A DNA stretch of 48,964 nucleotides from positions 1 to 48,964 of IMG/VR virus record IMGVR_UViG_3300035178_000013. The stretch is one strand, 5' to 3'. Below the pieces are notes generated by a model. That model saw nothing but the letters and a program-made list of their open reading frames with translations. It was not told the DNA's origin and did not search any database. Made by a program: the position numbers and the translations under genes. This DNA is from a virus. This document shows, piece by piece, positions 1,073 to 46,718 of the stretch; the stretch's first letter is position 1; the number at the start of each line of letters is the position of its first letter.

Positions 1073-1094
1073 CAGCCAGAAGGAGCCGAACCTC

Positions 1095-1610: not shown

Positions 1611-1612
1611 CC

Positions 1613-2684: not shown

Positions 2685-3358
2685 CCCTCGACGCCAGCGA
2701 CATCAGTCCACAGCCTATCCACATTCCGACCCCACAGATCGCGGTCGGCGAGCAGCTCGAGAAGGCCGGCGTCCCGCCCCGCTTCCTCGGCCACCGGCTC
2801 CGGACCTACCGGGTCAACCGACCCGATCAGGCGTTGGCGGTGCAGGGCGTTGAGCGGGTGGTCACCGGCTACGCCAGCCTCGTCCTGACCGGTCCAACCG
2901 GCACCGGCAAGACCCACCTCGTGGTGTCGGCGCTGGCCCTGCTGGCGGAGGGCGACCGGCTTATCAGCCCGTACGTCCTGCCTCGTGGCCTGTTCGTGGT
3001 CGTGCCTGAGCTCCTCGACGCCGTGCGGGGGACCATCCGCTACGCCGAGGCCGACGATCCGATGGCCCGGCTGATGGACGTCCCGCTGTTGGTCCTCGAC
3101 GACCTCGGCGCGGAGAAGCCGACCGAGTGGGTCTTCGACCGGCTGTACGTCCTCGTCAACCACCGGTACAACGCCAAGCTGGTCACCGTGGTGACGACCA
3201 ACTACTCGGTCCGGGAGCTGGACGAGCGAGGCTATGGGCGGATCATCTCCCGGCTGATGGAGGACGCCAACGTCGTCGTGCTGGACGGTCCGGACGAGCG
3301 TCTGTCCACACACAATCCACCAAGCTATCCACAAGCTGAGGTCGAGGATGGCTCGTGA
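2681..3358 (+). CDS. DnaC/IstB-like helicase loader ATPase
   Basis: A 225-residue AAA+ protein. It has Walker A GPTGTGKTH (residues 71-79), Walker B LLVLDDLG (Asp140, Asp141), a VTTNY sensor-like motif and a GRIISRL arginine-finger-like segment. This is the pattern of DnaC/DnaI loaders, which load the replicative helicase at the origin. The start is ATG 2681, overlapping the previous stop. No helicase gene is present in the window, so it probably recruits the host DnaB. DnaA-box-like 9-mers lie at both ends of the gene. Confidence 0.88.
   Translation: MTLDASDISPQPIHIPTPQIAVGEQLEKAGVPPRFLGHRLRTYRVNRPDQALAVQGVERVVTGYASLVLTGPTGTGKTHLVVSALALLAEGDRLISPYVLPRGLFVVVPELLDAVRGTIRYAEADDPMARLMDVPLLVLDDLGAEKPTEWVFDRLYVLVNHRYNAKLVTVVTTNYSVRELDERGYGRIISRLMEDANVVVLDGPDERLSTHNPPSYPQAEVEDGS
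2704..2723. other. Pair of DnaA-box-like 9-mers
   Basis: CAGTCCACA (2704-2712) and CTATCCACA (2715-2723) lie one helical turn apart at the start of the helicase-loader gene. The second matches TTATCCACA at eight of nine bases. A second cluster lies at 3302-3333. They are inside coding sequence, so coincidence is possible. Confidence 0.3.
3302..3333. other. Cluster of DnaA-box-like 9-mers
   Basis: CTGTCCACA (3302-3310) and CTATCCACA (3325-3333) flank a weaker CAATCCACC, with starts about two helical turns apart. They lie just before the putative replication initiator gene. Together with the 2704-2723 pair and the repeats at 3717-3800 they suggest an origin region. Confidence 0.35.
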
Positions 3359-4079
3359 CGCCGGCTTCAGTCGAGCGGACATCGATGCCACGATGCTCGA
3401 CGACGTGAAGTTCCGTCGACTGTGGCGGGTGCTGAACGACGAGACGGTCATGGCACTGGCGGTCACGATCTACCTCGCTACGGTGCTCCGCTCGTGGCAC
3501 GATGGCGAGGCCGTGAGCGCCGACGATGCCGTTCCGATGTGGCTGGGCCCCAACGAGCAGGCACTCGAGGCCCTGACCGAGGTCGACCTCCTCGACGCTG
3601 ACCACCGGATCCCCGCCGAGAGCTTCGCGGCGTGGATCGGCCCTGCCTTTGACCGACGCGAACGAAAGCGAGCCGGGGGAAGAGAAGGTGGTCTCAGAAG
3701 TCATGGTGTGAAGAAAGACCTGACACGACCTGTACCTGTCCTGTCCCGTCCTGACGATGCTCGAGGTACAGTCGAGGATAGCTCAAGCATAGCTTCTGGG
3801 AAGGGAGAGCCACGCTCAGAATCGGCCGTTCTGTACTACTTCGACCTCACCAAGCGGGAACCGACGAACAATGTGCAGGCGTGGGTAGGTGAGCTCGAGG
3901 ATACCTACGGGACACCTGCCGTCCGAGCCGCCATGGACACCGAGTGGTCCCGATCGAAGCAGCTCAACAACCTGCTCTCCCGGGTCGAGGCCCGCCTCAA
4001 GGACCCCGGCCCCAAGACCGCGAAGACCACCAGCCGAGGGGCTGCCCTCGAAGCTGCCGGCCAGAGGCCCCTGCGATGA
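3348..4079 (+). CDS. Putative replication initiator/primosome protein
   Basis: A 243-residue protein starting at ATG 3348, overlapping the helicase loader by 11 bases. The N-terminal 95 residues (DVKFRRLWRVLNDETVMALA, IYLATVLRSW) look like the helical N-terminal domain of phage replisome organisers. A low-complexity linker (about residues 105-165) joins a helical C-terminal domain (NNVQAWVGELEDTYG, EWSRSKQLNNLLSRVEARLK). The bases encoding the linker hold origin-like repeats, as in lambda O. The function is inferred from domain layout and the loader neighbour. Confidence 0.6.
   Translation: MARDAGFSRADIDATMLDDVKFRRLWRVLNDETVMALAVTIYLATVLRSWHDGEAVSADDAVPMWLGPNEQALEALTEVDLLDADHRIPAESFAAWIGPAFDRRERKRAGGREGGLRSHGVKKDLTRPVPVLSRPDDARGTVEDSSSIASGKGEPRSESAVLYYFDLTKREPTNNVQAWVGELEDTYGTPAVRAAMDTEWSRSKQLNNLLSRVEARLKDPGPKTAKTTSRGAALEAAGQRPLR
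3717..3800. repeat. Short direct repeats inside the initiator gene, possible origin
   Basis: This stretch contains repeated GACCTG/ACCTGT/CCTGTCC units at about 3717-3755, then TCGAGGTACAG followed by TCGAGGATAG at about 3761-3780, in a locally less GC-rich segment. It codes for the low-complexity linker of the initiator-like protein. In lambdoid phages the initiator binds iterons within its own gene, so this is a candidate origin. Confidence 0.3.
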
Positions 4080-8717: not shown

Positions 8718-8880
8718 GAACACCCATCTCGCCCTGAGTCACATCGTCCAGAACGTGCTCGCCTCGCACGGCTTCGTGCTGGCCGACTGGCAGGTGACCC
8801 GGATGCCGGACCGTGACGTCGTGGCCTTCGTGATCCCCCGCACCAGCCCGATCGTGCTCCCGTCCAAGCCATCGACGTGA
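8665..8880 (+). CDS. Small protein between terminase subunits
   Basis: A 71-residue protein starting at ATG 8665, in another frame within the end of the small terminase gene, and ending in a four-base overlap with the large subunit. It folds plausibly as helix-strand-strand (ALSHIVQNVLASHGFVLADW, DVVAFVIPR). No family recognised; overlap at both ends supports translation. Confidence 0.55.
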   Translation: MAQPAPPHLLETPGLPTENTHLALSHIVQNVLASHGFVLADWQVTRMPDRDVVAFVIPRTSPIVLPSKPST

Positions 8881-10256
8881 CCGCGGCTCCCACGCTTCCG
8901 TGGATGCGGGTTCCGTACCTCAGCCCGCACTTCCCCCATCCTCGACAGGCGGTGTTCCTGAGCCTCGACGAGGTGATCGAGGCGCTGTACGGCGGAGCTG
9001 CCGGCGGGGGGAAGTCGGACGCCATCCTGATGGGCTCGCTGCAGGACGTCGACAAGCCGCGCTACTCGGCGCTCATCCTGCGCCGCACGTTCGCCGACCT
9101 GTCCCTGCCGGACGCGATCATGGCCCGCGCCAAGGAATGGCTCTACGGCAAGCCGGGCGTGAAGTGGAACGAGGGCATGAAGAGCTTCTCGTTCTTCGAG
9201 GTCGCCGGCAAGAAGATCGATCCGCCCAGCCGGCTGACGTTCGGCTTCCTCGAGGGCGAGAACGACAAGTACCGCTATCAGGGCAGCGCCTACCAGTACA
9301 TCGGCTTCGACGAGCTCACCCAGTTCCGCGAGTCGGACTACCGCTACCTGTTCAGCCGGCTTCGACGGACCGAGGAGCAGGGGGCCGACGTGCCGCTCCG
9401 GATGCGGGGCGCGACCAACCCCGGTGGCGTGGGCCACGAGTGGGTCAAGGCTCGGTTCATCTCGAAGCAGCGCCCGGACCGCTTGTTCGTGGCCGCCCGG
9501 CTGGCCGACAACCCGAGCCTCGACCAAGAGGCGTACGAGGGGGCGCTCGCCCAGCTCGATGACATCAGCCGAGCCCAGCTCCTGTACGGCGACTGGGACG
9601 TCCGCCCTGATGGCAAGGTCTTCCGGCAGGGCACGTTCCACTACCTCGAGCCCGAGGAGTTCGACCCCGCCGGCTACATCTGGGTCCGGCGCTGGGATCT
9701 CGCAGCCACGAAGCCGGTCAAGGGCAAGGACCCCGACTACACGGTCGGGGTGCTCATGGGCCGGCACCGGGAGACGGGCCGATGCGTCGTCGCGGACGTG
9801 GTCCGTCTCCGCAACACTCCTGACGAGGTCGAGCGTGTGGTGAAGGCCACCGCCGAGCGTGACGGTCGCGAGCTCCGGGTCCGGATGGAGCAGGAGCCGG
9901 GGGCCAGCGGCGTCCACCTCATCGACCACTACGGCCGGAAGGTGCTGTGGGGCTACAACTTCAGCGGCGACAAGGTCACCGGCGACAAGGTGGCCCGGGC
10001 GATGCCCTACGCCACGATGGCGAACCGCGGTCAGGTCGACCTCATCCGGGCCGACTGGAACAGCGCCTACGTCGGTGAGTGCGAGGCGTTCCCCGACGGG
10101 GCCCACGACGATCAGGTCGACGCCAGCTCGGGGGCGCATCACGATCTGGTCAGCAACTACGAGCCCGGCGCTGGTACGATCGAGCCGCCCGACGGACGGC
10201 GCATCGATGACGCGTACCGGTCCCGGCGGCACAGCTACGGATCGGTGACTCGATGA
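8877..10256 (+). CDS. terL: Terminase large subunit (packaging motor and nuclease)
   Basis: A 459-residue TerL with GTG start at 8877. The ATPase half has Walker A GGAAGGGKS (residues 39-47) and Walker B YIGFDE (Asp145, Glu146). The nuclease half has the RNase H-like acidic residues Asp274 in RWDLAAT and Asp411/Asp412/Asp415 in HDDQVDA, plus an EQEPGASG segment. It pumps DNA into proheads and cuts the concatemer. All expected motifs are present and the length is normal. Confidence 0.95.
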   Translation: MTAAPTLPWMRVPYLSPHFPHPRQAVFLSLDEVIEALYGGAAGGGKSDAILMGSLQDVDKPRYSALILRRTFADLSLPDAIMARAKEWLYGKPGVKWNEGMKSFSFFEVAGKKIDPPSRLTFGFLEGENDKYRYQGSAYQYIGFDELTQFRESDYRYLFSRLRRTEEQGADVPLRMRGATNPGGVGHEWVKARFISKQRPDRLFVAARLADNPSLDQEAYEGALAQLDDISRAQLLYGDWDVRPDGKVFRQGTFHYLEPEEFDPAGYIWVRRWDLAATKPVKGKDPDYTVGVLMGRHRETGRCVVADVVRLRNTPDEVERVVKATAERDGRELRVRMEQEPGASGVHLIDHYGRKVLWGYNFSGDKVTGDKVARAMPYATMANRGQVDLIRADWNSAYVGECEAFPDGAHDDQVDASSGAHHDLVSNYEPGAGTIEPPDGRRIDDAYRSRRHSYGSVTR

Positions 10257-10525: not shown

Positions 10526-10787
10526 GCCGTGCTCGGTCTGTAGCCGGCCCCGGCGACCGAGGGAACTCCTCGAGCTGACCTGCATCCCGCATCAGGGCCG
10601 GCACCGGCACGTTGTGTGTCGCCCGACCCTGCCAGAGCAGGACCGGGCGTCCTCGTGCTTCCGTCGCCGATCAGGCTCGGCAGCCGCGTGGGCGATTGGG
10701 CTAGCGGATCCGACGCCAGCCGTAGAAGAACTGGCCGTCGAGCGGCGGGAGCACCTGATCGAACAGCCACGTCTCGGTGCCGCGTAG
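10515..10787 (+). CDS. Hypothetical cysteine-containing protein
   Basis: A 90-residue reading frame starting at ATG 10515 within the J-domain gene. It opens MDTEPCSVCSRPRRPRELLE and later has a HRHVVCRP segment, which could bind zinc. The last 30 codons overlap the reverse-strand gene at 10701-10811, and there codon choice favours the reverse strand. It is the final forward gene before the convergent junction; the true extent is doubtful. Confidence 0.4.
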   Translation: MDTEPCSVCSRPRRPRELLELTCIPHQGRHRHVVCRPTLPEQDRASSCFRRRSGSAAAWAIGLADPTPAVEELAVERREHLIEQPRLGAA

Positions 10788-10811
10788 CCGCCACCATCGG
10801 AGCCAGCGCAT
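10701..10811 (-). CDS. Tiny reverse-strand protein
   Basis: A 36-residue protein on the reverse strand (starts MRWLRWWRLRGTETWLFDQV), coupled to the preceding reverse gene by a TGATG overlap at 10809-10813. It is Trp- and Arg-rich with GC-biased third positions. It is the last gene of the reverse operon and converges on the forward gene at 10515. Function unknown. Confidence 0.45.
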   Translation of the reverse strand: MRWLRWWRLRGTETWLFDQVLPPLDGQFFYGWRRIR

Positions 10812-11041
10812 CAATGCACCGGCCTTGCGAGCGGCGTGATCGACAGGATCTGCCAGTCCTCGAGCTCGGCGTACACCGGCTCTTCGCCGGACGCTTCCAT
10901 CGCCTCCCCCAGCTCCATCATCGGGCGGTGGTCGCCGGCGAATCGGACCGCTCGGGTCTCCTCCTCGTCGACCGTCTCGCCCCAGCCGTAGCCGATCGTT
11001 GACATGGCGGGGATGTTCACCCGCAGAACCCAGACCTTCAT
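10811..11041 (-). CDS. Hypothetical accessory protein
   Basis: A 76-residue reverse-strand protein starting at 11041 (MKVWVLRVNIPAMSTIGYGW...). The beta-rich N-terminus and acidic middle (DEEETRAV, ELGEAMEASGEEPV) suggest a small alpha/beta domain. It overlaps both neighbours by a few bases, so the operon is translationally coupled. I do not recognise the family. Confidence 0.6.
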   Translation of the reverse strand: MKVWVLRVNIPAMSTIGYGWGETVDEEETRAVRFAGDHRPMMELGEAMEASGEEPVYAELEDWQILSITPLARPVH

Positions 11042-11304
11042 GACTCCTCCTCGGTTGGCTCGACGTCATCGTCGCACGGGTCGAGCCAGTCGGCCGTGGA
11101 CGCTTTCAGTAGCTTGTTCGCGATCGCCTTGTCGTTGAGCACCTTCAGGTTGGGTGTCCAGCCGGTGTCGATCGTGGCGTCGTGGCGCAGGCCATGCCGG
11201 CACACGAACGCCATCGGGGCGATGCCCGACAGCCGGACCTCACCCTCGCGTTCCCTGAACTCGAGGATGAGGGTCCCGAAGCGGACGACCCGGCCGACGG
11301 CCAT
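11038..11304 (-). CDS. Hypothetical accessory protein
   Basis: An 88-residue reverse-strand protein starting at 11304. The first half is beta-rich (RVVRFGTLILEFREREGEVR) with a CRHGLRHDA segment; the C-terminus is acidic (DPCDDDVEPTEEES). It starts within the stop of the upstream gene and overlaps the downstream start. Function unknown. Confidence 0.6.
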   Translation of the reverse strand: MAVGRVVRFGTLILEFREREGEVRLSGIAPMAFVCRHGLRHDATIDTGWTPNLKVLNDKAIANKLLKASTADWLDPCDDDVEPTEEES

Positions 11305-11720
11305 CAGGAGATCTGGTACTCGCCGAGTCCAGCTCGGGCTCGTGCGTCGAGGCGGGCGGCCTCGGGTCCCATGGTCGTCCGCTCGAAGACGCCCAGCACC
11401 GCTTGGAACTGGCCGGTCTCGACGATGGCGAAGCCAACCTGCTGGCCGGTCTCTTCGTACGGCTGGCGGATCTCGCTCAGTCGGGTCATGAGCTGGCCCG
11501 GGGTCAGGGCCGGTTCGGTCTCACCGCCCCAGCCGGTCATGTCGACGAACAGGGTGTCGACCATCTCCCAGCCGTCGGGGCGGAAGTCGCCGAGGTTGGG
11601 GAATGGGAAGGGTGCGGTCGGCGGGTCACCCCGCCAGTACACGAACGGCGTGTCTCCGGCAACCTGAGCTGCATCGCCGGCCTCGTGGGCCATGTCGCGG
11701 ATCGTCTCGGGTGAGAACAT
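11304..11720 (-). CDS. Hypothetical accessory protein
   Basis: A 138-residue reverse-strand protein with ATG at 11720 and a good AAGGAG ribosome site upstream. It contains FVYWRGDPPTAPFPFPNLGD and EMVDTLFVDMTGWGGETEPA and looks like a globular alpha/beta protein without an identified catalytic motif. It lies ten bases downstream of the 226/278-residue protein in the same operon. Confidence 0.65.
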   Translation of the reverse strand: MFSPETIRDMAHEAGDAAQVAGDTPFVYWRGDPPTAPFPFPNLGDFRPDGWEMVDTLFVDMTGWGGETEPALTPGQLMTRLSEIRQPYEETGQQVGFAIVETGQFQAVLGVFERTTMGPEAARLDARARAGLGEYQIS

Positions 11721-11730
11721 CTCCTACTCC

Positions 11731-12567
11731 TTAGCTGCGCCGGTCGAGGGTGACCACCGAGGTCGGTGGCACCGTCTCCCGGACCGTCTTCTGATACGAG
11801 GCCCATGCCCGACCACTCAGGCCGGTGCCCTCGCCGTCGATGAACGCCTCGGCCGGGAAGAGGGCGACGCCCTCGGTCAGGCCAAGCCCTGCGAGCTTCC
11901 GCTTTGACCCGAAGGTCACGGTCTCGCCGGTCTCGATGATCTTCCAGTAGCGGCCGAACCGACCGCGGTTGAAGTAGGCCGGGACGTACTCGCCCTTCTC
12001 GTTGAACAGGGCGTCGAACTTCGCGAGCCCGCCCTCCTCGAGGATCGTGGCCTGCAGTCGGTCGCGATCAGCACTGACGCCGTGGGCCCACTGGCTCACG
12101 AAGCCGTCGGTGTCGCTCTTCTCGATGCTCTCGTTCCGGAGTCGCTCGTTCTCGTCGGCTCGGAGTCGCGCCTGCCGTGCGGCCTCGGCGAGATCCTCGT
12201 CTCGCTCGCGGGCCAGCTCGGCTTCGGCGACGACTGTCTCCAGCGAGATCGGCTCGTGGCCGACGTGCCACGGGTGGGTCACGCCGAACGAGGATCCTGC
12301 CGGGCAGGCCGAGCAGAACACGCTGTTGCCGACGATCGGTCGGAAGGCGTGGGTCTCGTAGGCCGGCTCGCCGAGCTCCTCGAGCATCCGGCGGTTCCAT
12401 GGGCTGGTCATCGTGGTGTCTCCTATCGTGGAAGCGTCGAGCCCGCCAACCGGAGGGGTTTGGTCCGAAGCAGCTCCGTGTGGACTTGAAGGAGCGCGAC
12501 CCTTATTAGTGGCCCGGTCCTTACTGTCGGTGCCGAACCCCTTGGTTCCGGCGGCGGTCTCGATCAC
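11731..12567 (-). CDS. Coiled-coil accessory protein, two possible starts
   Basis: On the reverse strand, a GTG at 12567 lies exactly six bases after the -10 box of a strong promoter, so a leaderless start would give 278 residues. An ATG at 12411 with TAGGAG upstream gives 226 residues and better codon bias. The protein has a FCSACPAGSS cysteine pair, a long charged coiled coil (ETVVAEAELARERDEDLAEA...) and a C-terminal globular part (FGRYWKIIETGETVTFGSK). The 52 extra residues are low complexity, so the ATG is at least as likely. Function unknown. Confidence 0.6.
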   Translation of the reverse strand: MIETAAGTKGFGTDSKDRATNKGRAPSSPHGAASDQTPPVGGLDASTIGDTTMTSPWNRRMLEELGEPAYETHAFRPIVGNSVFCSACPAGSSFGVTHPWHVGHEPISLETVVAEAELARERDEDLAEAARQARLRADENERLRNESIEKSDTDGFVSQWAHGVSADRDRLQATILEEGGLAKFDALFNEKGEYVPAYFNRGRFGRYWKIIETGETVTFGSKRKLAGLGLTEGVALFPAEAFIDGEGTGLSGRAWASYQKTVRETVPPTSVVTLDRRS

Positions 12568-12573
12568 GTCCCT

Positions 12574-12602
12574 ACTATAGCACCGCGCTATAGCGGTGTC
12601 AA
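12574..12602 (-). promoter_or_regulatory. Reverse promoter with perfect operator palindrome
   Basis: Read on the reverse strand: TTGACA (12602-12597), 17-base spacer, TATAGT (12579-12574). It is a near-consensus vegetative promoter. CTATAGC-ACCGC-GCTATAG (12575-12593) is a perfect seven-base inverted repeat covering the spacer and -10, so a bound repressor would block polymerase. The next start codon, GTG 12567, is six bases past the -10, predicting a leaderless message. Confidence 0.85.
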
Positions 12603-12605
12603 GCC

Positions 12606-12959
12606 CTAGTTGGTCAGGACGTAGTACGAATCGGTCACCCCGTCGACCTCGACGTCGAGCTCGGTGTAGTCCATCTTCAGCTCGTCGGCAGCGGCAGGCC
12701 AGTCGATGTGGGTGGCCGGCCAGTGGGCGTCGTCATCGATGGCACCGGTGTCCTCGGCGAGCTGACGGGCGTAGTCCTCGAAGTACCGCTCGTGGACGAG
12801 GGTCAGGCCATCTCGGATCTGGACCGGGTCCCAGTAGTCGTCGATCTCCTTGTTCAGGGAGTCGAACCACGGGCGCTCGTCCGCCGGGACGTCCTCCTCG
12901 AGGTCGAGCTCCCGAAGCGTCCGGGAGTCGATCAGGTCGGCGCGGTACAGGTCAGTCAC
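12606..12959 (-). CDS. Acidic ArdA-like/DNA-mimic-type protein
   Basis: A 117-residue, strongly acidic reverse-strand protein. The core reads VHERYFEDYARQLAEDTGAI, then WPATHIDWPAAADELKMDYT and VDGVTDSYYVL. This resembles the IDW...A..L..DY...(G)..Y module of ArdA-type antirestriction proteins and a common actinophage family. ArdA proteins mimic DNA and block type I restriction enzymes; that role is inferred from the motif and charge. It overlaps the upstream gene by eight bases and ends the promoter-13.64-kb operon. Confidence 0.5.
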   Translation of the reverse strand: MTDLYRADLIDSRTLRELDLEEDVPADERPWFDSLNKEIDDYWDPVQIRDGLTLVHERYFEDYARQLAEDTGAIDDDAHWPATHIDWPAAADELKMDYTELDVEVDGVTDSYYVLTN

Positions 12960-13278
12960 GGGTCATCTCCTCGTACTGGGCCCACGTCTCGAACCGGTCA
13001 TGGACCGGGATCGCCCGGTAGCCGACCGCGCTGTTCCAGCGGCTGTCGCTGGTGGCGGCGAAGGTGCCCCCGTTCATCGGGCCGGCCTTCTCAGGCTGGT
13101 AGGTGTCGGGGACGAGGATCGGGTCGCCGTAGGGCGTGTGCCACAGGCGAGCGGCCGGGGCCTCGGGCGTGGGCTCGAATGGCCCGGGCAGGTTGACCAC
13201 GGTGACGCTCTTCGCTCCGTGGAAGACGTTGGCCTCGGAGTCGTGCTGGCTCCGGTAGATGCTGACGTGCAGTCCCAT
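12952..13278 (-). CDS. Hypothetical accessory protein
   Basis: A 108-residue reverse-strand protein starting at ATG 13278 (MGLHVSIYRSQHDSEANVFH...) after an AAAGGAA ribosome site. It overlaps the previous stop (TGATG). The sequence suggests a beta-rich domain (GAKSVTVVNLPGPF, ARLWHTPYGDPILVP). I recall similar small accessory proteins in actinophages but no function. Confidence 0.6.
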   Translation of the reverse strand: MGLHVSIYRSQHDSEANVFHGAKSVTVVNLPGPFEPTPEAPAARLWHTPYGDPILVPDTYQPEKAGPMNGGTFAATSDSRWNSAVGYRAIPVHDRFETWAQYEEMTRD

Positions 13279-13634
13279 CAGTTGGTTCCTTTCTTGGTGG
13301 CCCAGCTCGGCTCGCCCGTCTCCGGGTCGAGGACGATGCCCTTGAGCATCGGCTTCAGGCACGGGGCGACGGCCGTGTGGCCGAAGGTCCATGCGGTCTC
13401 TTCGGCGTCACGGTCGTAGGGCTCGAGGACGAACCAGCCGGCCATCGCCTTGTCCGCGGCCTTGATGGCCTCGACCATGTCGGCACCGCGGTAGGTGTTC
13501 GGCGGGTCCCATCGGTCCTGCTGAACATGACGCCCGTTGGTGAGGTCTTTGCAGCCGGCGCGATGGCTCACGAAGTCGCCGCGGGTATCCTTGGCAATCG
13601 TGAACGCCACGTCGGTCCTATCTGTCTCGCTCAT
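13278..13634 (-). CDS. Hypothetical protein, first gene of a leaderless operon
   Basis: A 118-residue reverse-strand protein whose ATG (13634) lies six bases after the -10 of the promoter at 13641-13668, so translation is expected without a leader or ribosome site. It contains FTIAKDTRGDFVSHRAGCKD and WFVLEPYDRDAEETAWTFGH, an alpha/beta layout without a known motif. It leads a three-gene operon ending with the ArdA-like protein. Confidence 0.65.
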   Translation of the reverse strand: MSETDRTDVAFTIAKDTRGDFVSHRAGCKDLTNGRHVQQDRWDPPNTYRGADMVEAIKAADKAMAGWFVLEPYDRDAEETAWTFGHTAVAPCLKPMLKGIVLDPETGEPSWATKKGTN

Positions 13635-13640
13635 GTGTCT

Positions 13641-13668
13641 ACTATAGCATGGCGCTAGTGGAAGTCAA
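13641..13668 (-). promoter_or_regulatory. Reverse leaderless promoter with operator
   Basis: On the reverse strand: TTGACT (13668-13663), 16-base spacer, TATAGT (13646-13641), then six bases and the ATG at 13634. The operator CTATAGC-ATGGC-GCTAGTG occupies 13642-13660 and also contains the forward ATG at 13649. Regulator binding could therefore affect both directions. Confidence 0.8.
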
Positions 13669-14080
13669 GCCCCCACGCACCCGCAAGCGAGGTCTCGGAC
13701 GGCCTCGGATGGTGCCGAACTGCATCGTCTGCGGCATCCACTACCTGAACGAGTCGGGGGTCCCGGTCTACGCGTTCAGCCTCATCGGATCGCTCGTCAG
13801 CCCAGCGGGGAAGCGAACGAGTAAGAGCGTTGGTGCGGTCAGCATCTGCCGGCCCTGTCTCAAAGACATCGGTCGCGGGGTGGTCGTGCCCGAGGACGAC
13901 GGGACCGGCGACATGGAGATCGCGACCGTCCAGTTCACGCATGGATCCGCGGGCTACCAGCGCGGCTGTCGATGCCCGAGCTGCCGGGCCGCCAACACCT
14001 ACTCGGTCCGGAGGCACCGGGCCCGCGTTCGCGAGCGGGAGCTCGTCTCAGCAGGAGCACTGAATGGCGACATGGACTGA
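13649..14080 (+). CDS. Zinc-binding protein divergent from the reverse operon
   Basis: A 143-residue forward protein. Its ATG at 13649 lies within the operator, 15 bases from the divergent ATG; an in-frame ATG at 13709 is an alternative start. It has two zinc-type clusters: CIVCGIHYL with CRPCL, and RGCRCPSCRAANTYS followed by a basic tail. The second cluster is widespread in actinophage proteins and may bind nucleic acid. It precedes the portal gene with a 17-base overlap. Confidence 0.65.
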   Translation: MALVEVKPPRTRKRGLGRPRMVPNCIVCGIHYLNESGVPVYAFSLIGSLVSPAGKRTSKSVGAVSICRPCLKDIGRGVVVPEDDGTGDMEIATVQFTHGSAGYQRGCRCPSCRAANTYSVRRHRARVRERELVSAGALNGDMD

Positions 14081-15533
14081 GCGGGCGGCCTCGTTTCTCT
14101 TCGGCCGAACCCTCAAGGAAGCCAGCTATGACGGCGGCGAGATTGACCCGGACGACTACCTGTACCGGCGCGTCACCGACGACAAGCGGGATCTGAACCC
14201 GATCACCCATCAGCGGGCGATCGAGATCAGCCGCGCCCTGTGGCAGCGGAACCCGATGGCGAAGCGGCTCATCGAGATCGTCCTCGACATGGTGCTCGGC
14301 GATGGCCTGACCCTGAACGCCGAGGACGAGGACGTGCAGGAGATCATCACCGAGTTCTGGGAGGACCCGGTGATGCGCCTCGACCTCCGCTTCCGAGACC
14401 TGATGCGCGACCTGTCGATCGAGGGCGAGCTCGTCCTCCGTGCCTACGAGGGCAACGCCGGCGGCCGGGTCCGGCTGGGCTACATCGATCCCGACCGGAT
14501 CAAGCAGGTGCTCAAGGACCCCGACAACATGTTCGTGGACGACAAGATCGTCCTGAACCCGAAGGAGATCGGTGGCCCGGACGAGGAGCTCCAGTGCGTC
14601 CGGCTCGAGGTGATCGGCGGGAGCCACGAGTACACCGGCGACACCTTCTTCTACGCCATCAACCGATCCGTCGCGGGCCACCGGGGCAACCCGGACCTGC
14701 TGGCCCTCGCCGACTGGATCGATGCACACGACCAGATCCTCTTCAACGCGCTGGACCGCACCGGTCTGCAGAACGCGTTCGTCTGGGACGTCCTGCTCAT
14801 GGGAGCCGACGAGACCCAGATCGGGGAGTGGATCACGAAACACGGCTCGGCTCCGCGGCCCGGCTCGGTGCGGGTCCACAACGACTCTGAGAAGTGGGAG
14901 GCCATCGCCCCTCAGCTCGGTGCCGCGGAACTCGAGACCGTGGCTCGGATGGTGAAGAACCTCGTCCTCGGTGGGCATGGCCTGCCCGAGGCATGGTTCG
15001 CCGAGGGGGACAGCGCCAACCGCGCCACGCTGGCCGAGCAGGGGACGCCGACGTTCCGGATGATCGTCGCCCGCCAGAAGGCGGTGAAGTACATCGTCGA
15101 GGACATCCTGCAGTACGTCATCGAGAAGGCGGTCGAGGCGAGCCGCCTGTCGAAGACCGTCAACCGGACCGTCTCGGTCGACCTGACCGAGCCCAGCTCC
15201 GACGACGTCACCGAGATGGTCACCGCTCTGCCTCAGCTCGTGAACGCGATGATGGGGGCCATCGGCGAGGAGCTCATCAGCCGCGAGTCGGCCCGCACCG
15301 TCTTCCTCCAGCTCGTCAACGGGCTGGGCATCGAGTTCGACCCGGAGTCCGAGGTCGACAAGATCGAGGACGAGAAGGAGGCCGAAGAGGCCAAGGCCGA
15401 AGAGGAGCGGAAGGCGGCCATGGCCCTCGGCCTGCGCCCCTCCCTGCCCGGTGCCGCGGCGATCCAGCCCAATCAGCCGGTTGCGCCGGCGGCCAACGGT
15501 AAGGAGCCCGCGCCCGTCGCTGCGGCGAAGTAG
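14064..15533 (+). CDS. Portal protein
   Basis: A 489-residue portal. It forms the dodecameric DNA gate at one capsid vertex. Recognisable parts are an N-terminal clip/stem region, ITHQRAIEISRALWQRNPMA (binding helix), GYIDPDRIKQVL, a long helix with KAVKYIVEDILQYVIEKAVE, and a charged C-terminal tail with EEAKAEEERKAAMA. Start ATG 14064 follows AGGAG. Size and order (terminase, portal, MuF, capsid) are typical of siphoviruses. Confidence 0.88.
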   Translation: MATWTERAASFLFGRTLKEASYDGGEIDPDDYLYRRVTDDKRDLNPITHQRAIEISRALWQRNPMAKRLIEIVLDMVLGDGLTLNAEDEDVQEIITEFWEDPVMRLDLRFRDLMRDLSIEGELVLRAYEGNAGGRVRLGYIDPDRIKQVLKDPDNMFVDDKIVLNPKEIGGPDEELQCVRLEVIGGSHEYTGDTFFYAINRSVAGHRGNPDLLALADWIDAHDQILFNALDRTGLQNAFVWDVLLMGADETQIGEWITKHGSAPRPGSVRVHNDSEKWEAIAPQLGAAELETVARMVKNLVLGGHGLPEAWFAEGDSANRATLAEQGTPTFRMIVARQKAVKYIVEDILQYVIEKAVEASRLSKTVNRTVSVDLTEPSSDDVTEMVTALPQLVNAMMGAIGEELISRESARTVFLQLVNGLGIEFDPESEVDKIEDEKEAEEAKAEEERKAAMALGLRPSLPGAAAIQPNQPVAPAANGKEPAPVAAAK

Positions 15534-17749: not shown

Positions 17750-18763
17750 GTGCTGGTCCGACTCGAAGAGCACCAGTCCCTCGTCCTCGTCGAAGCTGCC
17801 CAGCCGCGGGTGCCACCGGGAAGCTCGAAGGGCGGACAGTTCGCCAGCACTGGCGGCGGTGGTCACGCCAGCATCACGGGATCGTCCAAGCCGGAACGGG
17901 CGGCCCTCAACAAGTCCACGCGGGGCGAGATCGTGGCCCGCACCAGCGCCCAGCTCGGGATGTCTGAGCGGCCATGGCAGGATGGTGGAGCCGTTGGTGT
18001 CGCCGCCAAGCACACCGGGACTCACGAGGTCGGGAAGCGGCTCGACGCCAACCCTGCCTACCAGAAGGGCCTCCAGACCGAGGGCGGGATGTTCGTGCAG
18101 GGCGAGATGGAGGGGAACGCCCACGGGATCAACGGCTATTCGGGCGGCACCGCGGCGCATCCCCACAGTCAGGGGATGCAGTTCACCGACGGGGCACAGG
18201 ACATGTGGGCCCAGACCGCCTCGGGGTCGCAGACGGCGGCGGACTTCCAGTACGCGGCCAAGGCTGAGTTCGGAGTCGGGTCGACCAAGCACCTGCCGCT
18301 GCAGGCGCGGGGCTCGGCGCTCGAGGTGAGCCGGAACAGGCTGTCCGCCACCGAACTTGCTGATCGACAGGGCGTCATCCGCGCCTATCACCGCTCCCGG
18401 TACGACGACACGCAGGCCCACCTCGCCAGTCTCGGGATGCAGCCGACCGACCGGGTCACGCTCTTCCGGGGTACGGGCTCGATGCACGACGCGTCCGACC
18501 CGTTCTCGGCGGATGCTCCCCGTGAGCTCGAGCGGTCGGGCGCGGGTCGGAGCCGGACCACCACCGTGGAGCTGGCTCCGCTGTCGAGCTGGTCGAACAA
18601 CTTCGTGACCGCCTCCTCGTTCGGGGGGTCGGTCATGGCGGCCAGCTTCCCGGTGAGCCGGATCTATGGCATCAGCACCCGCGGTTCCGGGGCGCACAAC
18701 GAGGGCGAGGTCATCGTGCTCGGCTCGCCGGCGCACGGCTTCGATACGGTGGCCTTCACATGA
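17750..18763 (+). CDS. Tagged ADP-ribosyltransferase 1
   Basis: A 337-residue protein, GTG start at 17750. Residues 16-33 carry the tag AAQPRVPPGSSKGGQFAS, then a Gly-rich linker. The C-terminal domain has the R-S-E ADP-ribosyltransferase signature: Arg240 in VTLFRGTG, LSSWS (278-282) as the STS strand, and Glu318-Gly-Glu320 as the ExE loop. Such enzymes transfer ADP-ribose from NAD+ to host proteins, often on arginine for ExE types. It is paralogous to the next gene and lies among head genes, so injection is inferred, as for T4 Alt. Confidence 0.82.
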   Translation: MLVRLEEHQSLVLVEAAQPRVPPGSSKGGQFASTGGGGHASITGSSKPERAALNKSTRGEIVARTSAQLGMSERPWQDGGAVGVAAKHTGTHEVGKRLDANPAYQKGLQTEGGMFVQGEMEGNAHGINGYSGGTAAHPHSQGMQFTDGAQDMWAQTASGSQTAADFQYAAKAEFGVGSTKHLPLQARGSALEVSRNRLSATELADRQGVIRAYHRSRYDDTQAHLASLGMQPTDRVTLFRGTGSMHDASDPFSADAPRELERSGAGRSRTTTVELAPLSSWSNNFVTASSFGGSVMAASFPVSRIYGISTRGSGAHNEGEVIVLGSPAHGFDTVAFT

Positions 18764-19734
18764 CCCTTGCGATCGATGAGCTGGAGGCCGACTGGATCAA
18801 GCAGGCGCACGTCGATCCGCTCCACGAGGCTGCCCAGCCCCGCGTCCCGGCTGGCTCGACCAAGGGCGGCCAGTTCGCTTCGGCGGGCGGCGGGGCGGGC
18901 ACGTCAACGGCGGGTGCGACTGAGGCCGGCACCGCCAACCGGCAGAGGCTGGACAAGGCCATGTCGCAGACTCGCGGTGGAGTCGGTCCCAGTGAGGTCA
19001 AGGCGCGAGGGGCGACCGAGGTCGGTGCGATGCTCGACAAGCGCGGGTTCGAGCACACCGAGTCGATGGATGGCTACGTCGCGGACAAGGGCCACGACTT
19101 CGGCGATGCGCCGAAGGTGTACACCGACAACCCCGGCTACTGGACGTCGGGGAAGCAGTACGCCAACGCGATGCAGTCGACGTGGGCCCAGTCGGCGGCC
19201 GACAGTCATCCGGTGGCGATCCAGATGCAACATGCCGCCAGCAAAGAGTTCGGCCTGCAGGCTCGGACCGACCACCTGAAGCCTCTCGACTCGAAGGTAG
19301 GTTGGGTGCAGGGCAGGGACCCGGCCACCGACCCGCCGCCGATGTCCACCCTGCGAACGTATGCTCGAGCCCGGTATGACCATACGCAGGCGTCGCTCGC
19401 CGCGATGGGGGTGACCGGCGAAGTCACCCTCTACCGAGGGACGTACACCGGCCGACGTGACCCGGGGACCGGCGGCCCCGAGGTGTCGCCCGCGGCCAGC
19501 ACCTTCCCGACGCGGCAGACCACCAACGCCCATCTGGCCCCGCTCTCGTCGTGGTCGACGTCCATCGATGTCGCGGAGAGCTTCGGCGACTCGGTGATGA
19601 CCGCGACCTTCCCGGTCAAGCGGATCTTCGGCACGGCTCTGACCGGGTCGGGCGCTCTGACTGAGCACGAGGTCATCGTTATCGGTGGTAGCCCCGATCC
19701 GGTCAGCGTCACGACGACCCCGAGGTCGTACTGA
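18760..19734 (+). CDS. Tagged ADP-ribosyltransferase 2
   Basis: A 324-residue protein starting at ATG 18760, overlapping the first transferase. It has an N-terminal DELEADWIKQ segment, the tag QPRVPAGSTKGGQFAS (26-41), and a catalytic domain with Arg226 (VTLYRGTYTG), SSWS (263-266) and Glu302-His-Glu304 (EHEVIVIGG). All three ART signature regions are intact. Similarity to gene 1 across LAPLSSWS and the surrounding region shows duplication followed by divergence. The target is unknown. Confidence 0.82.
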   Translation: MTLAIDELEADWIKQAHVDPLHEAAQPRVPAGSTKGGQFASAGGGAGTSTAGATEAGTANRQRLDKAMSQTRGGVGPSEVKARGATEVGAMLDKRGFEHTESMDGYVADKGHDFGDAPKVYTDNPGYWTSGKQYANAMQSTWAQSAADSHPVAIQMQHAASKEFGLQARTDHLKPLDSKVGWVQGRDPATDPPPMSTLRTYARARYDHTQASLAAMGVTGEVTLYRGTYTGRRDPGTGGPEVSPAASTFPTRQTTNAHLAPLSSWSTSIDVAESFGDSVMTATFPVKRIFGTALTGSGALTEHEVIVIGGSPDPVSVTTTPRSY

Positions 19735-20405
19735 TGACCTTCTACCCCGACGACCTCGAAGAGGATTGGATCAAGCAGGTCCCGCCGTGGGCCATCCGCG
19801 AGGCGTACAACCCGGGCCAGCCGCGCAACCCTCGAGGCTCCCCGCATGGCGGTGAGTTCGCCAGCTCCCGAGGTGGTGCCGGCTCGACGGGTGGCGCGAC
19901 CGGCCAACGCGGCAGGATGGCACCGGCCGAGGGCGAGGCGAAGATCCAAGCCATGGAGGCCCTGATCGCGCACAACAACTACGAGACCGGGGTCGTGTTC
20001 CGCAACGGTGAGCTGGTCGGTGAGGCACGGGGCGACTCCCACTCGGTCGAGGTCGGTTCGCAGCCGGGTGACGTCGTGCTCCACAACCACCCGTCGGATT
20101 CGACGCTGTCTCTGCAGGACGGCGACTCGGCGTTCGGCGGTGAGCTCGGCGAGGTGCGGTCGGTCGGTCCGTCGACGTACTCCCGGCTGGCCCCGGCTCC
20201 GGGCCAGAAGACCTTCAACGCCGCCGATCAGGACCGATACCGGCAGGCCGTCGAGACGACGATCGTCGAGCTTGGGATCGGGCAGAGGGTCCCCGGCGGG
20301 GTCCGGTTTACGACGACCGACCTGCCCTCCCTGAGCCAGCAGACTGCGATGTGGAACCGGATCGCGACTAAGATGCGTGTCCGGTTTGAGGCAGGCTCTC
20401 GATGA
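19734..20405 (+). CDS. Tagged JAB/JAMM-type peptidase
   Basis: A 223-residue protein starting at ATG 19734. The N-terminus (DDLEEDWIKQ, then YNPGQPRNPRGSPHGGEFAS at 25-44) matches the ART2 leader. The C-terminal domain has TGVVFRNGELVGEARGDSH, then LHNHPSD with His117/His119 and Ser126-xx-Asp129: the HxHP...SxxD zinc motif of JAB/MPN+ isopeptidases. Such domains cleave ubiquitin-like or other isopeptide bonds; in phages some process tail or cell-wall substrates. An injected protease effector is the context-based reading. Confidence 0.72.
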   Translation: MTFYPDDLEEDWIKQVPPWAIREAYNPGQPRNPRGSPHGGEFASSRGGAGSTGGATGQRGRMAPAEGEAKIQAMEALIAHNNYETGVVFRNGELVGEARGDSHSVEVGSQPGDVVLHNHPSDSTLSLQDGDSAFGGELGEVRSVGPSTYSRLAPAPGQKTFNAADQDRYRQAVETTIVELGIGQRVPGGVRFTTTDLPSLSQQTAMWNRIATKMRVRFEAGSR

Positions 20406-21385
20406 CCTCGATCATCCTCGACGGCACGGACATCTGGCGTGAGGTTCGCTGGGGTACGCCGCTTCGCGAGCACCTGTCCGGCAAGCATGACCAGCGGGCC
20501 CACGGCCGAAAGGGCAGCCTGTCGGCTCCCGATCACATGGACGGCCTGCATCCGAACGCGGTCGCCGCGATCCATGCCCGGGCGGCCTCGATGGGGATCG
20601 ACTCGGCCGCGATGACCCAGCGGATGACCGATCTCTACCTGAAGGCCACGCCGGCGCAGCTCGAAGCGGGGATGGGCTGGTATCAGAAGGTCGGCGACCA
20701 CGGTGAGGCCATCGGTAGGCCCTACGGCATCAGCCGTGAACGCACGTCGGCGGTGTACGCCGCCCTCAGCCCGGCTCGAAGCTGGGAGAACAACATGCGG
20801 GTCGGCGACTCGATCCTCCACGTCGTGGGCAAGGACGAACCGTTCCACGCAGACCCGACGTTGGCTGCCTCGGCCCGCCCGCCGTTCGGTGGTGGTCGGG
20901 TCCGGCCATCCCAGCTCACACCGGCCCAGCTCGCATGGACGCATCCCGAGTTCCGTGGTGCAGCGGCCTCGTCAATCAATCACTACCGGCAGGTCTCGAC
21001 GGGGATCGAACTGGCTCGGGGCGACATCACGCCAGACATGGCCCTCACCGGCCCGAAGACCCGGTCGTTCCACAACAACATCTTCGACCCCCGAGACGCG
21101 TCCAGCGTCACGATCGACGACTGGATGTACCGAACGGCCCTCGGGCCGGACACGACGCTGACGATCAGCGGAGCCCAGCATCGGACTGGCGACTTCGACT
21201 ACGGCCAGATGGGCGCGGTCATGACCCGCTCGCCGGCCGTCGCGTCGGCTGGCTACCCGTCGGGTTCGGGGCTGTACCCGCTCTTCGGTGATGCGATCAC
21301 CGTCGGCGCTCACAGCGTCGGGGTCCTGCCGCACCAGTTCCAAGCGGTCGTCTGGGTGGTTGCCCGGGACGGCGGGATACAGTAG
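20402..21385 (+). CDS. DUF7178-like protein with KHDQRxHG tag
   Basis: A 327-residue protein starting at ATG 20402. Residues 23-35 (EHLSGKHDQRAHG) are a second class of phage head-associated tag. The main domain has GWYQKVGDHGEAIGRPYGIS, YAALSPARSWENN, GPKTRSFHNNIFDP and SVTIDDWMYRTALG, the order of a phage family I recall as DUF7178 (usually VTIDRHA). The biochemical role of that family is unknown to me. The stop codon lies inside an operator palindrome (21380-21398). Confidence 0.6.
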   Translation: MTSIILDGTDIWREVRWGTPLREHLSGKHDQRAHGRKGSLSAPDHMDGLHPNAVAAIHARAASMGIDSAAMTQRMTDLYLKATPAQLEAGMGWYQKVGDHGEAIGRPYGISRERTSAVYAALSPARSWENNMRVGDSILHVVGKDEPFHADPTLAASARPPFGGGRVRPSQLTPAQLAWTHPEFRGAAASSINHYRQVSTGIELARGDITPDMALTGPKTRSFHNNIFDPRDASSVTIDDWMYRTALGPDTTLTISGAQHRTGDFDYGQMGAVMTRSPAVASAGYPSGSGLYPLFGDAITVGAHSVGVLPHQFQAVVWVVARDGGIQ

Positions 21386-21398
21386 CATGATGCTATGG
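21360..21398 (+). promoter_or_regulatory. Operator and putative promoter within the effector cassette
   Basis: CAGTAGC-ATGAT-GCTATGG (21380-21398) is an exact match to the NNNTAGC-N5-GCTANNN operator. TTGCCC (21360-21365), a 17-base spacer and TAGCAT (21383-21388) could form a promoter, with the ATG at 21395 six bases after the -10 as at the leaderless sites. An alternative -10, TATGGT, would place the start of transcription inside the gene. The promoter is weaker than the reverse ones. Confidence 0.5.
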
Positions 21399-22846: not shown

Positions 22847-23565
22847 CCTTCCTGCTCGGTCGGGATCTCACCGACGAGGAGCTCGACGAGGCCGCCGAAG
22901 AGGCGGCCCTCTTCATGGACGAGCTGGTCCCGCCGCGCCCTGAGCTCGAGGAGAAGTACAACCCCTCACAGGCTCGGGACAAGGGCGGGAAGTGGACGTC
23001 CGGTGGTGGTGGCGGTGGCGCGATCGCCTCGGCCGCCCGCTCCGCCGAGCCGGCCATCTCCGACTCGATGCAGACCGCGGCTCACGCGGCGGGGGGTGAG
23101 CTCGTCGGCTTCGAGCACCGGCTGAAGAGCGGCGAGTCGCTCGACCGCAAGATCGGCAAGTACGAGTCCGAGGGTCACATGACCCACGAGCAGGCCGTGG
23201 GCAGCATCAACGACGCGGTCCGCTACACGGTCCAGACGTCACCCGAGGGCTACAGCGCGGGGTATGTGCAGGCCCAGCAGTCCCTGTCGGCGGCCGGCCA
23301 CACCCGGCTGCGGACCCGGCAATACTGGGCCAACCCGGACCAGACCGGCTACGTTGGGATCAACGAGGTCTGGCAGACGAGCTCGGGCCAGCGGTTCGAG
23401 GTCCAGTTCCATACGGCCCAGACATGGGCCCTCAAGCAGCAGTCCCACGTCTTCTACGAGCATTACCGCACGGCTCGGACGCCATCCGCTCGGAGGATCG
23501 CGGACCAGCAGATGCATGCGCTCTGGTCGCACGTCGAGGTCCCGCCCGGGGCGTTGACGCTATGA
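22843..23565 (+). CDS. Tagged RelA/SpoT-like nucleotidyltransferase
   Basis: A 240-residue protein starting at ATG 22843. An acidic N-terminus precedes the tag YNPSQARDKGGKWTSG (39-54). The C-terminal domain has RLKSGESLDRK (Lys95-Lys103), Asp124-Ala-Val-Arg127-Tyr, YVGIN (170-174) and Glu186-V-Q-F-H-T. This matches the RelA/SpoT synthetase order (basic loop, D-x2-R, tyrosine loop, ExQ-x-H/R-T). Relatives make (p)ppGpp or (p)ppApp, or modify tRNA with pyrophosphate, and act as toxins. There is no hydrolase domain. Product unknown. Confidence 0.7.
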   Translation: MTFLLGRDLTDEELDEAAEEAALFMDELVPPRPELEEKYNPSQARDKGGKWTSGGGGGGAIASAARSAEPAISDSMQTAAHAAGGELVGFEHRLKSGESLDRKIGKYESEGHMTHEQAVGSINDAVRYTVQTSPEGYSAGYVQAQQSLSAAGHTRLRTRQYWANPDQTGYVGINEVWQTSSGQRFEVQFHTAQTWALKQQSHVFYEHYRTARTPSARRIADQQMHALWSHVEVPPGALTL

Positions 23566-23582
23566 TAGCGTCGTGCTAGAGT
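23554..23582 (+). promoter_or_regulatory. Promoter and operator of the 60-residue gene
   Basis: TTGACG (23554-23559), 17-base spacer, TAGAGT (23577-23582), then seven bases to GTG 23590, so a leaderless message is likely. The operator TGATAGC-GTCGT-GCTAGAG lies at 23563-23581, and an extra palindrome CGCTATGATAGCG (23559-23571 region) overlaps it. It lies against the end of the effector cassette. Confidence 0.78.
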
Positions 23583-23589
23583 CAGGATC

Positions 23590-23772
23590 GTGAAGACGTA
23601 CAAGTGGGAGCCGCTCTCAGGGACGCCGGTCGAGTTCCGGATCTCGGAGGATGCCGGCACTGTGGAAGTCAAGCGCCCCGACGAGACCGGCGGGGACGAG
23701 TGGGTCGCTCCCGAGGACCAGACGTTCTGGTACGAGCTCACGACTGATCCGTTCGTCACGGAGATCACCTAG
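23590..23772 (+). CDS. Moron-like 60-residue protein
   Basis: A 60-residue protein with GTG start at 23590 (MKTYKWEPLSGTPVEFRISE...), rich in acidic and aromatic residues and probably all-beta. It has its own promoter and operator and is followed by a strongly structured element, the make-up of a moron expressed independently of the late operon. An antitoxin or superinfection protein is conceivable; nothing in the sequence decides. Confidence 0.65.
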   Translation: MKTYKWEPLSGTPVEFRISEDAGTVEVKRPDETGGDEWVAPEDQTFWYELTTDPFVTEIT

Positions 23773-46234: not shown

Positions 46235-46281
46235 AGACCCCCGGCTCGAATGTGGCACGATCCACGAGCTGGGGGTCTTTT
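46235..46281 (+). terminator. Strong intrinsic terminator of the late operon
   Basis: A 14-base stem (AGACCCCCGGCTCG with CGAGCTGGGGGTCT, one G-U pair) encloses a 16-base loop and runs into TTTT. It ends late transcription and insulates the regulator promoter that starts three bases later. Confidence 0.88.
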
Positions 46282-46283
46282 CG

Positions 46284-46313
46284 TTGCGTCCGGGGCTGGC
46301 GGCATGCTATAGT
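46284..46313 (+). promoter_or_regulatory. Promoter of the HTH regulator with half-operator
   Basis: TTGCGT (46284-46289), 18-base spacer, TATAGT (46308-46313), with TGC before the -10. GGCTGGC-GGCAT-GCTATAG (46294-46312) keeps a perfect right half-site and a degenerate left one. The first ATG (46320) is six bases after the -10, so the message is expected to be leaderless for a 12-codon leader peptide. Confidence 0.75.
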
Positions 46314-46319
46314 CCCGGG

Positions 46320-46358
46320 ATGGGCCCAGCCCCCATCCTGAGAGGGAGGACAGATTGA
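46320..46358 (+). CDS. 12-residue leader peptide of the regulator gene
   Basis: ATG 46320 opens MGPAPILRGRTD and stops at TGA 46356-46358. The stop overlaps the TTG start of the regulator (46355) and the leader codes through the GAGGGAGGA ribosome site. The first base of the ATG is the predicted transcription start. Translation of the leader would couple to, and may limit, regulator synthesis. Confidence 0.5.
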   Translation: MGPAPILRGRTD

Positions 46359-46549
46359 CCAAGACCACGTCCGGCATCGAGCTCCGGGTCGAGCGGACTC
46401 GAGCCCGTGCGCGACAGATCGACGTTGCCAAGGCCGCCGGCCTGAGTCGTCAGCGGATCAGCCAGCTCGAATCGCTCGAGAAGGTCCCGCAGCGTCAGGT
46501 CGAGCGGTATCTGGCCGCGGTCCGCGAGCTGTCTGCGTCGGCCGCCTAG
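46355..46549 (+). CDS. Small XRE-type HTH regulator, candidate repressor
   Basis: A 64-residue helix-turn-helix protein with TTG start at 46355 after GAGGGAGGA. RARARQIDVAKAAGLSRQRI gives helices 2 and 3 of an XRE fold, with ISQLESLEK and VERYLAAVREL completing the domain. It has no separate dimerisation or cleavage domain, so it is Cro-like in size. Its own promoter carries a half-operator and the next promoter a full one, making it the best candidate to bind the recurring palindrome. The rare TTG start suggests low expression. Confidence 0.72.
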   Translation: MTKTTSGIELRVERTRARARQIDVAKAAGLSRQRISQLESLEKVPQRQVERYLAAVRELSASAA

Positions 46550-46718
46550 GCACTATGGAATCTGTAGCGAGGGTGCGTACTTTAGAACAGCGGTTCGAGT
46601 CGGGCCCGTGCTCAGGTTGCCCGGACCAGCTCTAGCACTGTGCTATACTTGATGTAAGCGAAAGCCCCGGCCCACTGGGGGCCGAGGCATCTCGCAGACG
46701 AAGGAGTAGGAACCTTCA
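46550..46718 (+). other. Untranslated early leader region
   Basis: This 169-base gap holds a CGGGC/GCCCG hairpin upstream of the -10 (about 46595-46616), the early operator, and a leader with GCCCCGGCCC/GGGGGCCGAGGC complementarity (about 46664-46688) before the AAGGAGTAGG ribosome site of the next gene. The leader hairpin could influence translation or RNA stability. A GTTCGAGTC at 46587 recalls a tRNA T-loop, but its flanks do not pair. Confidence 0.45.
46630..46649 (+). promoter_or_regulatory. Operator and -10 of the early operon
   Basis: CTCTAGC-ACTGT-GCTATAC (46630-46648) is an exact operator match. TGC-TATACT (46641-46649) is an extended -10. A TTGCCC lies 21 bases upstream, too far for a normal -35, so the extended -10 may suffice or an activator may help. 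It drives the genes from 46719 through the nuclease and probably across the genome junction. Confidence 0.72.

What the first reader, a model, noticed from the sequence alone, without database searches (positions are those of the whole stretch)
10701..13634. Two regulated reverse-strand accessory operons in a late forward genome
Eight reverse genes of unknown function sit between terminase and portal under near-consensus host-type promoters with strong operators. The pattern fits genes expressed from a prophage or very early in infection; one resembles an acidic antirestriction protein.
Basis: partly seen in the sequence, partly recalled or inferred. Interest (0 to 1): 0.68.

Follow-up and report, generated by a model that had tools for sequence, protein, structure and literature searches.

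The report
Phage early regulon with dispersed operators
In a nearly complete 49-kb phage genome, two backward-facing gene clusters, one carrying an anti-restriction-like gene, share one repeated DNA switch with the phage's replication genes and a small DNA-binding protein gene, so they are probably switched on together at the start of infection and then shut off.

Summary
Eight minus-strand genes lie between terminase and portal, behind two near-consensus promoters whose extended -10 overlaps an inverted repeat.

The repeat, TAGC-N5-GCTA, occurs six times in the window (chance 0.05) and is the most enriched of 1,536 inverted repeats tested. The window has only five extended -10 elements, on both strands. 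Four carry the full repeat and the fifth a one-mismatch copy (TGGC). They drive the two reverse operons, a 60-aa acidic gene at 23590, the 64-aa XRE helix-turn-helix gene at 46355, and the region leading into the early DNA-metabolism genes.

The genome is circular or permuted and nearly complete (about 49,052 bp). No integrase, resolvase or ParA was found, and a GTDB genome search gave no prophage kin. Gene 12606-12959 belongs to a short, very acidic ArdA-like phage family.

Best reading: a dispersed early/establishment regulon. Host RNA polymerase fires naked promoters on DNA entry, and a phage HTH protein then represses them. Close precedents are mycobacteriophage BPs gp33, Aca repressors and the p576 establishment regulon. 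That XRE protein 46355 is the regulator is inferred, not shown. The prophage-expressed reading is disfavoured. P2 also has an unusual 156-nt structured, non-coding leader.

The parts
13641..13668 (-). P1 promoter TTGACT-16-TATAGT, TG-extended; operator TAGCGCCATGCTA at 13645-13657 overlaps the -10
   Evidence: ATG 13634 lies 7 nt after the -10 (probably a leaderless start)
13278..13634 (-). P1 operon gene 1, 118 aa, no detectable relatives
12952..13278 (-). P1 operon gene 2, 108 aa, phrog_6045 family (unknown function) shared with Sinorhizobium, Brevundimonas, Methylophilales and Mycobacterium phages
   Evidence: 1.4e-5; 3e-11
12606..12959 (-). P1 operon gene 3, 117 aa, short ArdA-like protein, pI 4.1, net charge -24
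   Evidence: (phrog_25535 9.5e-17; phrog_2059 3e-4)
12574..12602 (-). P2 promoter TTGACA-17-TATAGT, TG-extended; operator CTATAGCGCGGTGCTATAG at 12575-12593 (perfect 7-bp inverted repeat)
12412..12567 (-). 156-nt 5' leader of the P2 transcript: non-coding-like and strongly structured
   Evidence: z -3.55, 0 of 200 shuffles; coding score in lowest 0.6% of 52-codon gene windows; GC3 0.63 against 0.89; no Rfam match
11731..12411 (-). P2 operon gene 1, 226 aa with AGGAG upstream; phrog_5855 domain (unknown function) also in Streptomyces and Rhodococcus phages
   Evidence: (3e-19)
11304..11720 (-). P2 operon gene 2, 138 aa, acidic (net -12), no relatives found
11038..11304 (-). P2 operon gene 3, 88 aa, no family match
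10811..11041 (-). P2 operon gene 4, 76 aa, acidic (net -8), no family match
10701..10811 (-). P2 operon gene 5, possible 36-aa ORF starting at the stop codon of the previous gene
   Evidence: read directly and the 10701-11069 frame; weakest of the eight
23554..23582 (+). Third operator-promoter: TTGACG-17-TAGAGT with TAGCGTCGTGCTA (23566-23578)
23590..23772 (+). 60-aa very acidic protein (net -9), GTG 8 nt after the -10, no family match
46236..46281 (+). Strong intrinsic-terminator hairpin with T run that separates the late region from the regulator
   Evidence: sequence; fold, -34 kcal/mol
46284..46313 (+). Promoter of the HTH gene, TTGCGT-18-TATAGT, with one-mismatch operator TGGCGGCATGCTA (46297-46309)
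46320..46358 (+). Possible 12-residue leader peptide whose ATG lies 7 nt after the -10 and whose stop overlaps the HTH start codon
   Evidence: read directly
46355..46549 (+). 64-aa XRE-type helix-turn-helix protein, candidate repressor of the regulon (TTG start, net +6)
   Evidence: (HTH_31 1.6e-5)
46633..46649 (+). Full operator TAGCACTGTGCTA plus extended -10 TGC-TATACT, heading the rightward early genes (46.8 kb to the window end, then across the junction into 118-4079: PD-(D/E)XK nuclease, Sak4-like ATPase, SSB, DnaC-like loader)
   Evidence: junction shown by L020
5264..5276 (.). TAGC-N5-GCTA site without a promoter-like context; role uncertain
21383..21395 (.). TAGC-N5-GCTA site spanning a stop codon and the next start codon, without a -35; role uncertain

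Best explanation
The two reverse operons are outposts of a genome-wide early ('establishment') regulon. On DNA entry no phage repressor is present, so host RNA polymerase fires five strong extended -10 promoters at once. They drive the two reverse accessory operons (one with an ArdA-like antirestriction protein), a small acidic gene at 23590, the 64-aa XRE HTH gene at 46355, and the rightward region leading into the recombination and replication genes. As the HTH protein accumulates it binds TAGC-N5-GCTA, whose right arm is the extended -10 and whose left arm lies in the spacer, and occludes polymerase. Its own promoter has only a one-mismatch operator, so it would be shut off last. The result is a short early pulse of accessory, probably anti-defence, proteins from a block lying backwards in the late region. 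Shown from sequence: promoters, operator, its multiplicity and placement, and the genes downstream. Inferred: that the HTH protein is the ligand, that binding represses, that the timing is early, and the anti-defence function.
For: TAGC-N5-GCTA occurs six times against 0.05 expected and ranks first of 1,536 inverted repeats. All five extended -10 elements in the window carry it or a one-mismatch copy; the combined motif occurred in 0 of 200 shuffles. Near-consensus hits without a TG extension number two (at 6947, at 44124), which is chance level. Operators lie on core promoters of both reverse operons and of the region preceding the nuclease, Sak4-like ATPase, SSB and helicase-loader genes. 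An XRE HTH gene sits between two of the sites. P1's third gene is ArdA-like and very acidic. Unrelated IMG/VR contigs with three to five copies of the same core place them at promoters beside small HTH/Cro-like and CI-like genes. Published precedents have the same layout: BPs gp33 binds five dispersed loci, with O_R between -10 and -35 (PMC4557955); Aca repressors bind inverted repeats inside core promoters (PMC9410906); p576 uses transient derepression of establishment operons (PMC8708921).
Against: No binding or expression data. The HTH protein has no detectable homology to regulators in the other operator-bearing contigs. Its best annotated phage match, a Serratia phage CI-named protein (49% over 41 aa, E 7e-3), comes from a phage without this operator. 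The other operator-bearing contigs were selected with a pattern containing the core, so only their multiplicity is independent. The operator is absent from distant terminase or portal relatives (one chance-level match in 11 records), so conservation cannot be tested beyond near-identical contigs. Two of the six sites (5264, 21383) have no promoter context. No reverse gene has a demonstrated anti-defence relative except the ArdA-like one.
Confidence: 0.6

Rival explanations
1. Temperate immunity regulon: the HTH protein is the lysogeny repressor of a temperate phage (BPs-like), and the reverse operons are lytic genes kept silent in the lysogen.
For: The layout matches BPs gp33, which controls four promoters through dispersed operators. 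Contigs with the same core operator show CI/Cro-like divergent arrangements.
Against: No tyrosine or serine integrase and no ParA in a nearly complete genome. The HTH protein is only 64 aa, without a C-terminal oligomerisation or cleavage domain. GTDB genomes gave only two short MAG contigs at 49% identity in terminase.
Confidence: 0.22
2. The operator is bound by a host-encoded regulator, so the phage couples these operons to host physiology.
For: The regulator is not proven to be phage-encoded; some phages use host repressors such as LexA (general knowledge).
Against: An HTH gene lies between two of the operators, with a weaker operator on its own promoter. Host unknown, so not directly tested.
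Confidence: 0.1
3. The repeat is an activator or promoter-architecture element, not a repressor operator.
For: Its right arm coincides with the extended -10, and all such promoters carry it.
Against: The dyad overlaps the -10 itself and extends to a perfect 7-bp palindrome at P2, a geometry typical of steric repression; P1 and P2 are already near-consensus and need no activator.
Confidence: 0.06
4. Lysogenic-conversion cargo (morons) expressed from a silent prophage, as the first reader offered as one option.
For: Reverse orientation and own promoters inside a late forward region.
Against: The same operator heads the early lytic region, so a repressor that silences lytic growth would also silence these operons; no lysogeny genes found; GC of the block equals the genome (0.669 against 0.672).
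Confidence: 0.02

Closest known systems
Mycobacteriophage BPs gp33 operator system (PMC4557955)
   Same: One phage HTH-type repressor with about five operator loci spread over the genome; operator O_R lies between -35 and -10 of the early promoter.
   Different: Operator sequence differs (paired 12-bp CGACATATGTCG half sites against TAGC-N5-GCTA); BPs integrates through an attP inside the repressor gene, whereas no integrase was found here; gp33 is 103/136 aa against 64 aa.
Anti-CRISPR-associated (Aca) repressors (PMC9410906)
   Same: Small HTH protein, near-consensus early promoter, inverted repeat inside the core promoter, transient early expression of anti-defence genes.
   Different: Aca genes follow acr genes in the same operon; here the HTH gene is about 33 kb away and would control several operons; no anti-CRISPR family was identified.
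p576/pLS20-clade II establishment regulon (PMC8708921)
   Same: Several operons of variable small anti-defence-type genes, including antirestriction genes, share one strong promoter-operator module and an autoregulated repressor, giving a pulse on entry.
   Different: Conjugative plasmid, ribbon-helix-helix repressor; here a phage and an XRE HTH protein.
CI/Cro-type immunity regions in IMG/VR contigs such as L060, L117, L126 and L166
   Same: Same TAGC-N5-GCTA core in the same position over the promoter.
   Different: Sites there are clustered around divergent cI/cro-like genes; in the window they are dispersed singly; no detectable homology of the HTH protein.
ArdA antirestriction proteins (PF07275)
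   Same: C-terminal half of 12606-12959 matches ArdA-annotated phage proteins at 55-61%; very acidic.
   Different: Only 117 aa, below the Pfam cut-off (16.2 against 27 bits), lacks the rest of the ArdA profile.

Membership tests
Dispersed-operator phage repressor regulon (BPs-like) | Several operator copies spread over the genome, each on a promoter | tested here: met
   five promoter-associated copies (one with a mismatch)
Dispersed-operator phage repressor regulon (BPs-like) | Phage-encoded HTH repressor that binds them | tested here: inconclusive
   A 64-aa XRE HTH gene is present between two sites; binding not testable here
Temperate phage | Integrase or partition system | tested here: not met
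   PF00589, PF00239 and PF13614 absent; genome lacks only about 88 bp
Aca repressor operon | HTH gene in the same operon as the anti-defence gene | tested here: not met
   HTH gene is at 46355, operons at 10.7-13.6 kb
Aca repressor operon | Inverted repeat inside the core promoter | tested here: met
ArdA (PF07275) | Match above the Pfam gathering score | tested here: not met
   16.2 against 27 bits, E 0.017
ArdA (PF07275) | Homology of the C-terminal half with annotated ArdA-like phage proteins | tested here: met
   55-61% identity; 17 invariant columns in 7 sequences; 5 of 7 members match PF07275, best 2.2e-5
ArdA (PF07275) | Strongly acidic DNA-mimic composition | tested here: met
   net -24 in 117 aa, pI 4.1
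ArdA (PF07275) | ArdA fold | tested here: inconclusive
   Model pLDDT 66, no significant PDB match
ArdA (PF07275) | Inhibits type I restriction | not testable with these tools
   needs an assay

The most novel reading that the evidence does not exclude
The operator marks a dispersed anti-defence regulon in a virulent phage. Most genes in the two reverse operons, plus the 23590 gene, are new anti-defence proteins fired as a pulse on entry. The structured 156-nt P2 leader is a new regulatory RNA that sets the level of the second operon.
Probability: 0.25. Interest if true: 0.65.

Novelty: new member of a known kind. Interest (0 to 1): 0.45.

Why it matters
It turns a local oddity (reverse genes in a late region) into a testable genome-wide circuit and shows that genes of unknown function scattered in a late phage region can be recognised as early genes by a shared operator. 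Operator-guided grouping of this kind could nominate anti-defence genes in phages whose accessory genes have no homologues.

Tried and rejected
Megablast of the region against phage records: no match. Portal and terminase relatives: only near-identical contigs carry the block; the others (28-51% in one protein) lack it and the operator. Homology of the HTH protein with regulators of other operator-bearing contigs: none. Link through Serratia phage CI-named proteins: operator absent there. AlphaFold models of the ArdA-like and HTH proteins were too poor to use; the HTH model is a single implausible long helix. Leaderless GTG start for 12567: rejected, since the extension does not look coding. 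Rfam, tRNA and PADLOC searches: nothing. A literature search for a published TAGC/GCTA Cro operator gave no relevant paper.

Full report
What was checked. The reported region holds eight minus-strand ORFs between terminase (8877-10256) and portal (14064-15533). Codon usage of the seven larger ones is as good as that of neighbouring genes; the eighth (36 aa) is weak. Two promoters, TTGACT-16-TATAGT and TTGACA-17-TATAGT, both TG-extended, precede three and five genes respectively.

The operator is genome-wide. Both promoters contain TAGC-N5-GCTA, extended to a perfect 7-bp repeat at P2. The core occurs six times in the window, with 0.05 expected and 0 of 100 shuffles reaching six. Among 1,536 possible four-base inverted repeats with spacers of 3-8 it ranks first, with P about 5e-11 before correction. 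A separate scan for extended -10 elements (TGNTA[TG]ANT) finds exactly five on both strands: P1, P2, 23574, 46305 and 46641. Four have TAGC at the exact left-arm position and the fifth TGGC; the combined motif never appeared in 200 shuffles. The remaining near-consensus hits (6947, 44124) lack the TG extension and are at chance level. Two core copies (5264, 21383) have no promoter context.

What the promoters drive. P1: 118-aa orphan, phrog_6045 protein, ArdA-like protein. P2: a 156-nt leader, then a phrog_5855-domain protein and four further small ORFs without family matches. 23574: a 60-aa acidic protein. 46305: the 64-aa XRE HTH protein, probably through a 12-residue leader peptide, just after a strong terminator. 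46641: the rightward region that holds a PD-(D/E)XK nuclease at the window's end and, across the junction, a Sak4-like ATPase, SSB and a DnaC-like loader. Contig L020 joins the window's end to its start with 88 bases missing, so the genome is circular or circularly permuted and nearly complete at about 49,052 bp. ATG or GTG lies 7-8 nt after the -10 at P1, 23574 and 46305, consistent with leaderless transcripts. At P2 such a GTG exists but the extension is not coding-like, and the leader folds better than all 200 shuffles (z -3.55) without any Rfam match.

ArdA-like protein. Residues 51-114 of 12606-12959 match ArdA-annotated phage proteins at 55-61%. Seven homologues share 17 invariant columns and five of seven match PF07275, best 2.2e-5. 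The window protein itself scores 16.2 bits against a cut-off of 27 and is 117 aa, so it is ArdA-like rather than a certified ArdA. It is the second most acidic protein by net charge per length of the 71 predicted.

Mechanism. The overlap of the dyad with the -10 argues for steric repression. The shared operator on early DNA-metabolism genes argues that the reverse operons are early genes. Weak self-repression at 46297 and full sites elsewhere fit a pulse that ends once the HTH protein accumulates. Lack of integrase, resolvase and ParA and of GTDB prophage kin argues against a lysogen-expressed cargo, though a temperate life style by other means is not excluded. The HTH protein as regulator rests on position and family only.

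Comparison. The architecture is that of mycobacteriophage BPs (gp33 at five dispersed loci, operator between -35 and -10; PMC4557955). The logic is that of Aca-controlled anti-CRISPR operons (inverted repeat in the core promoter; PMC9410906) and the p576 establishment regulon (PMC8708921). The same core operator, in the same place on the promoter, recurs in 36 IMG/VR loci with at least three copies, none of them a relative found through terminase or portal; in those of the 11 loci inspected that show a recognisable regulator, the sites lie beside small HTH, Cro-like or CI-like genes. The scan pattern included the core, so only the multiplicity is independent there. Filing: a new member of a known kind of regulon, with a mostly unknown gene content.

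Limits. Only near-identical contigs share the block, so neither operator nor leader conservation could be tested. The host is unknown. No expression or binding data exist.

Noticed in passing
17750-21385 and 22843-23565: Consecutive genes between the MuF-like gene and the capsid gene. Three share an N-terminal 'PRxPxGSxxGGxFAS' motif; two of these match dinitrogenase reductase ADP-ribosyltransferase (PF07357, 9e-7 above cut-off and 2.5e-4 below), another is DUF7178 (3e-25). Possibly virion-associated effectors.
   Followed up: partly
12412-12567 (-): Structured non-coding leader downstream of P2 (z -3.55) with no Rfam match; could be a regulatory RNA.
   Followed up: partly
23856-24104 (-): A ninth reverse-strand gene (82 aa, coding-like, no family match), convergent with the operator-controlled 23590 gene; no promoter recognised for it.
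   Followed up: no
46320-46358 (+): Possible leaderless 12-codon leader peptide (MGPAPILRGRTD) whose stop overlaps the TTG start of the HTH gene, suggesting translational coupling.
   Followed up: partly
window ends: Contig L020 bridges the window's end and start with 88 bases missing; the window is an almost complete circular or permuted genome.
   Followed up: yes
L056-L171 (IMG/VR loci): TAGC-N5-GCTA recurs in clusters of three to five, often at divergent promoters, in many other viral contigs, apparently a widespread CI/Cro operator type.
   Followed up: partly
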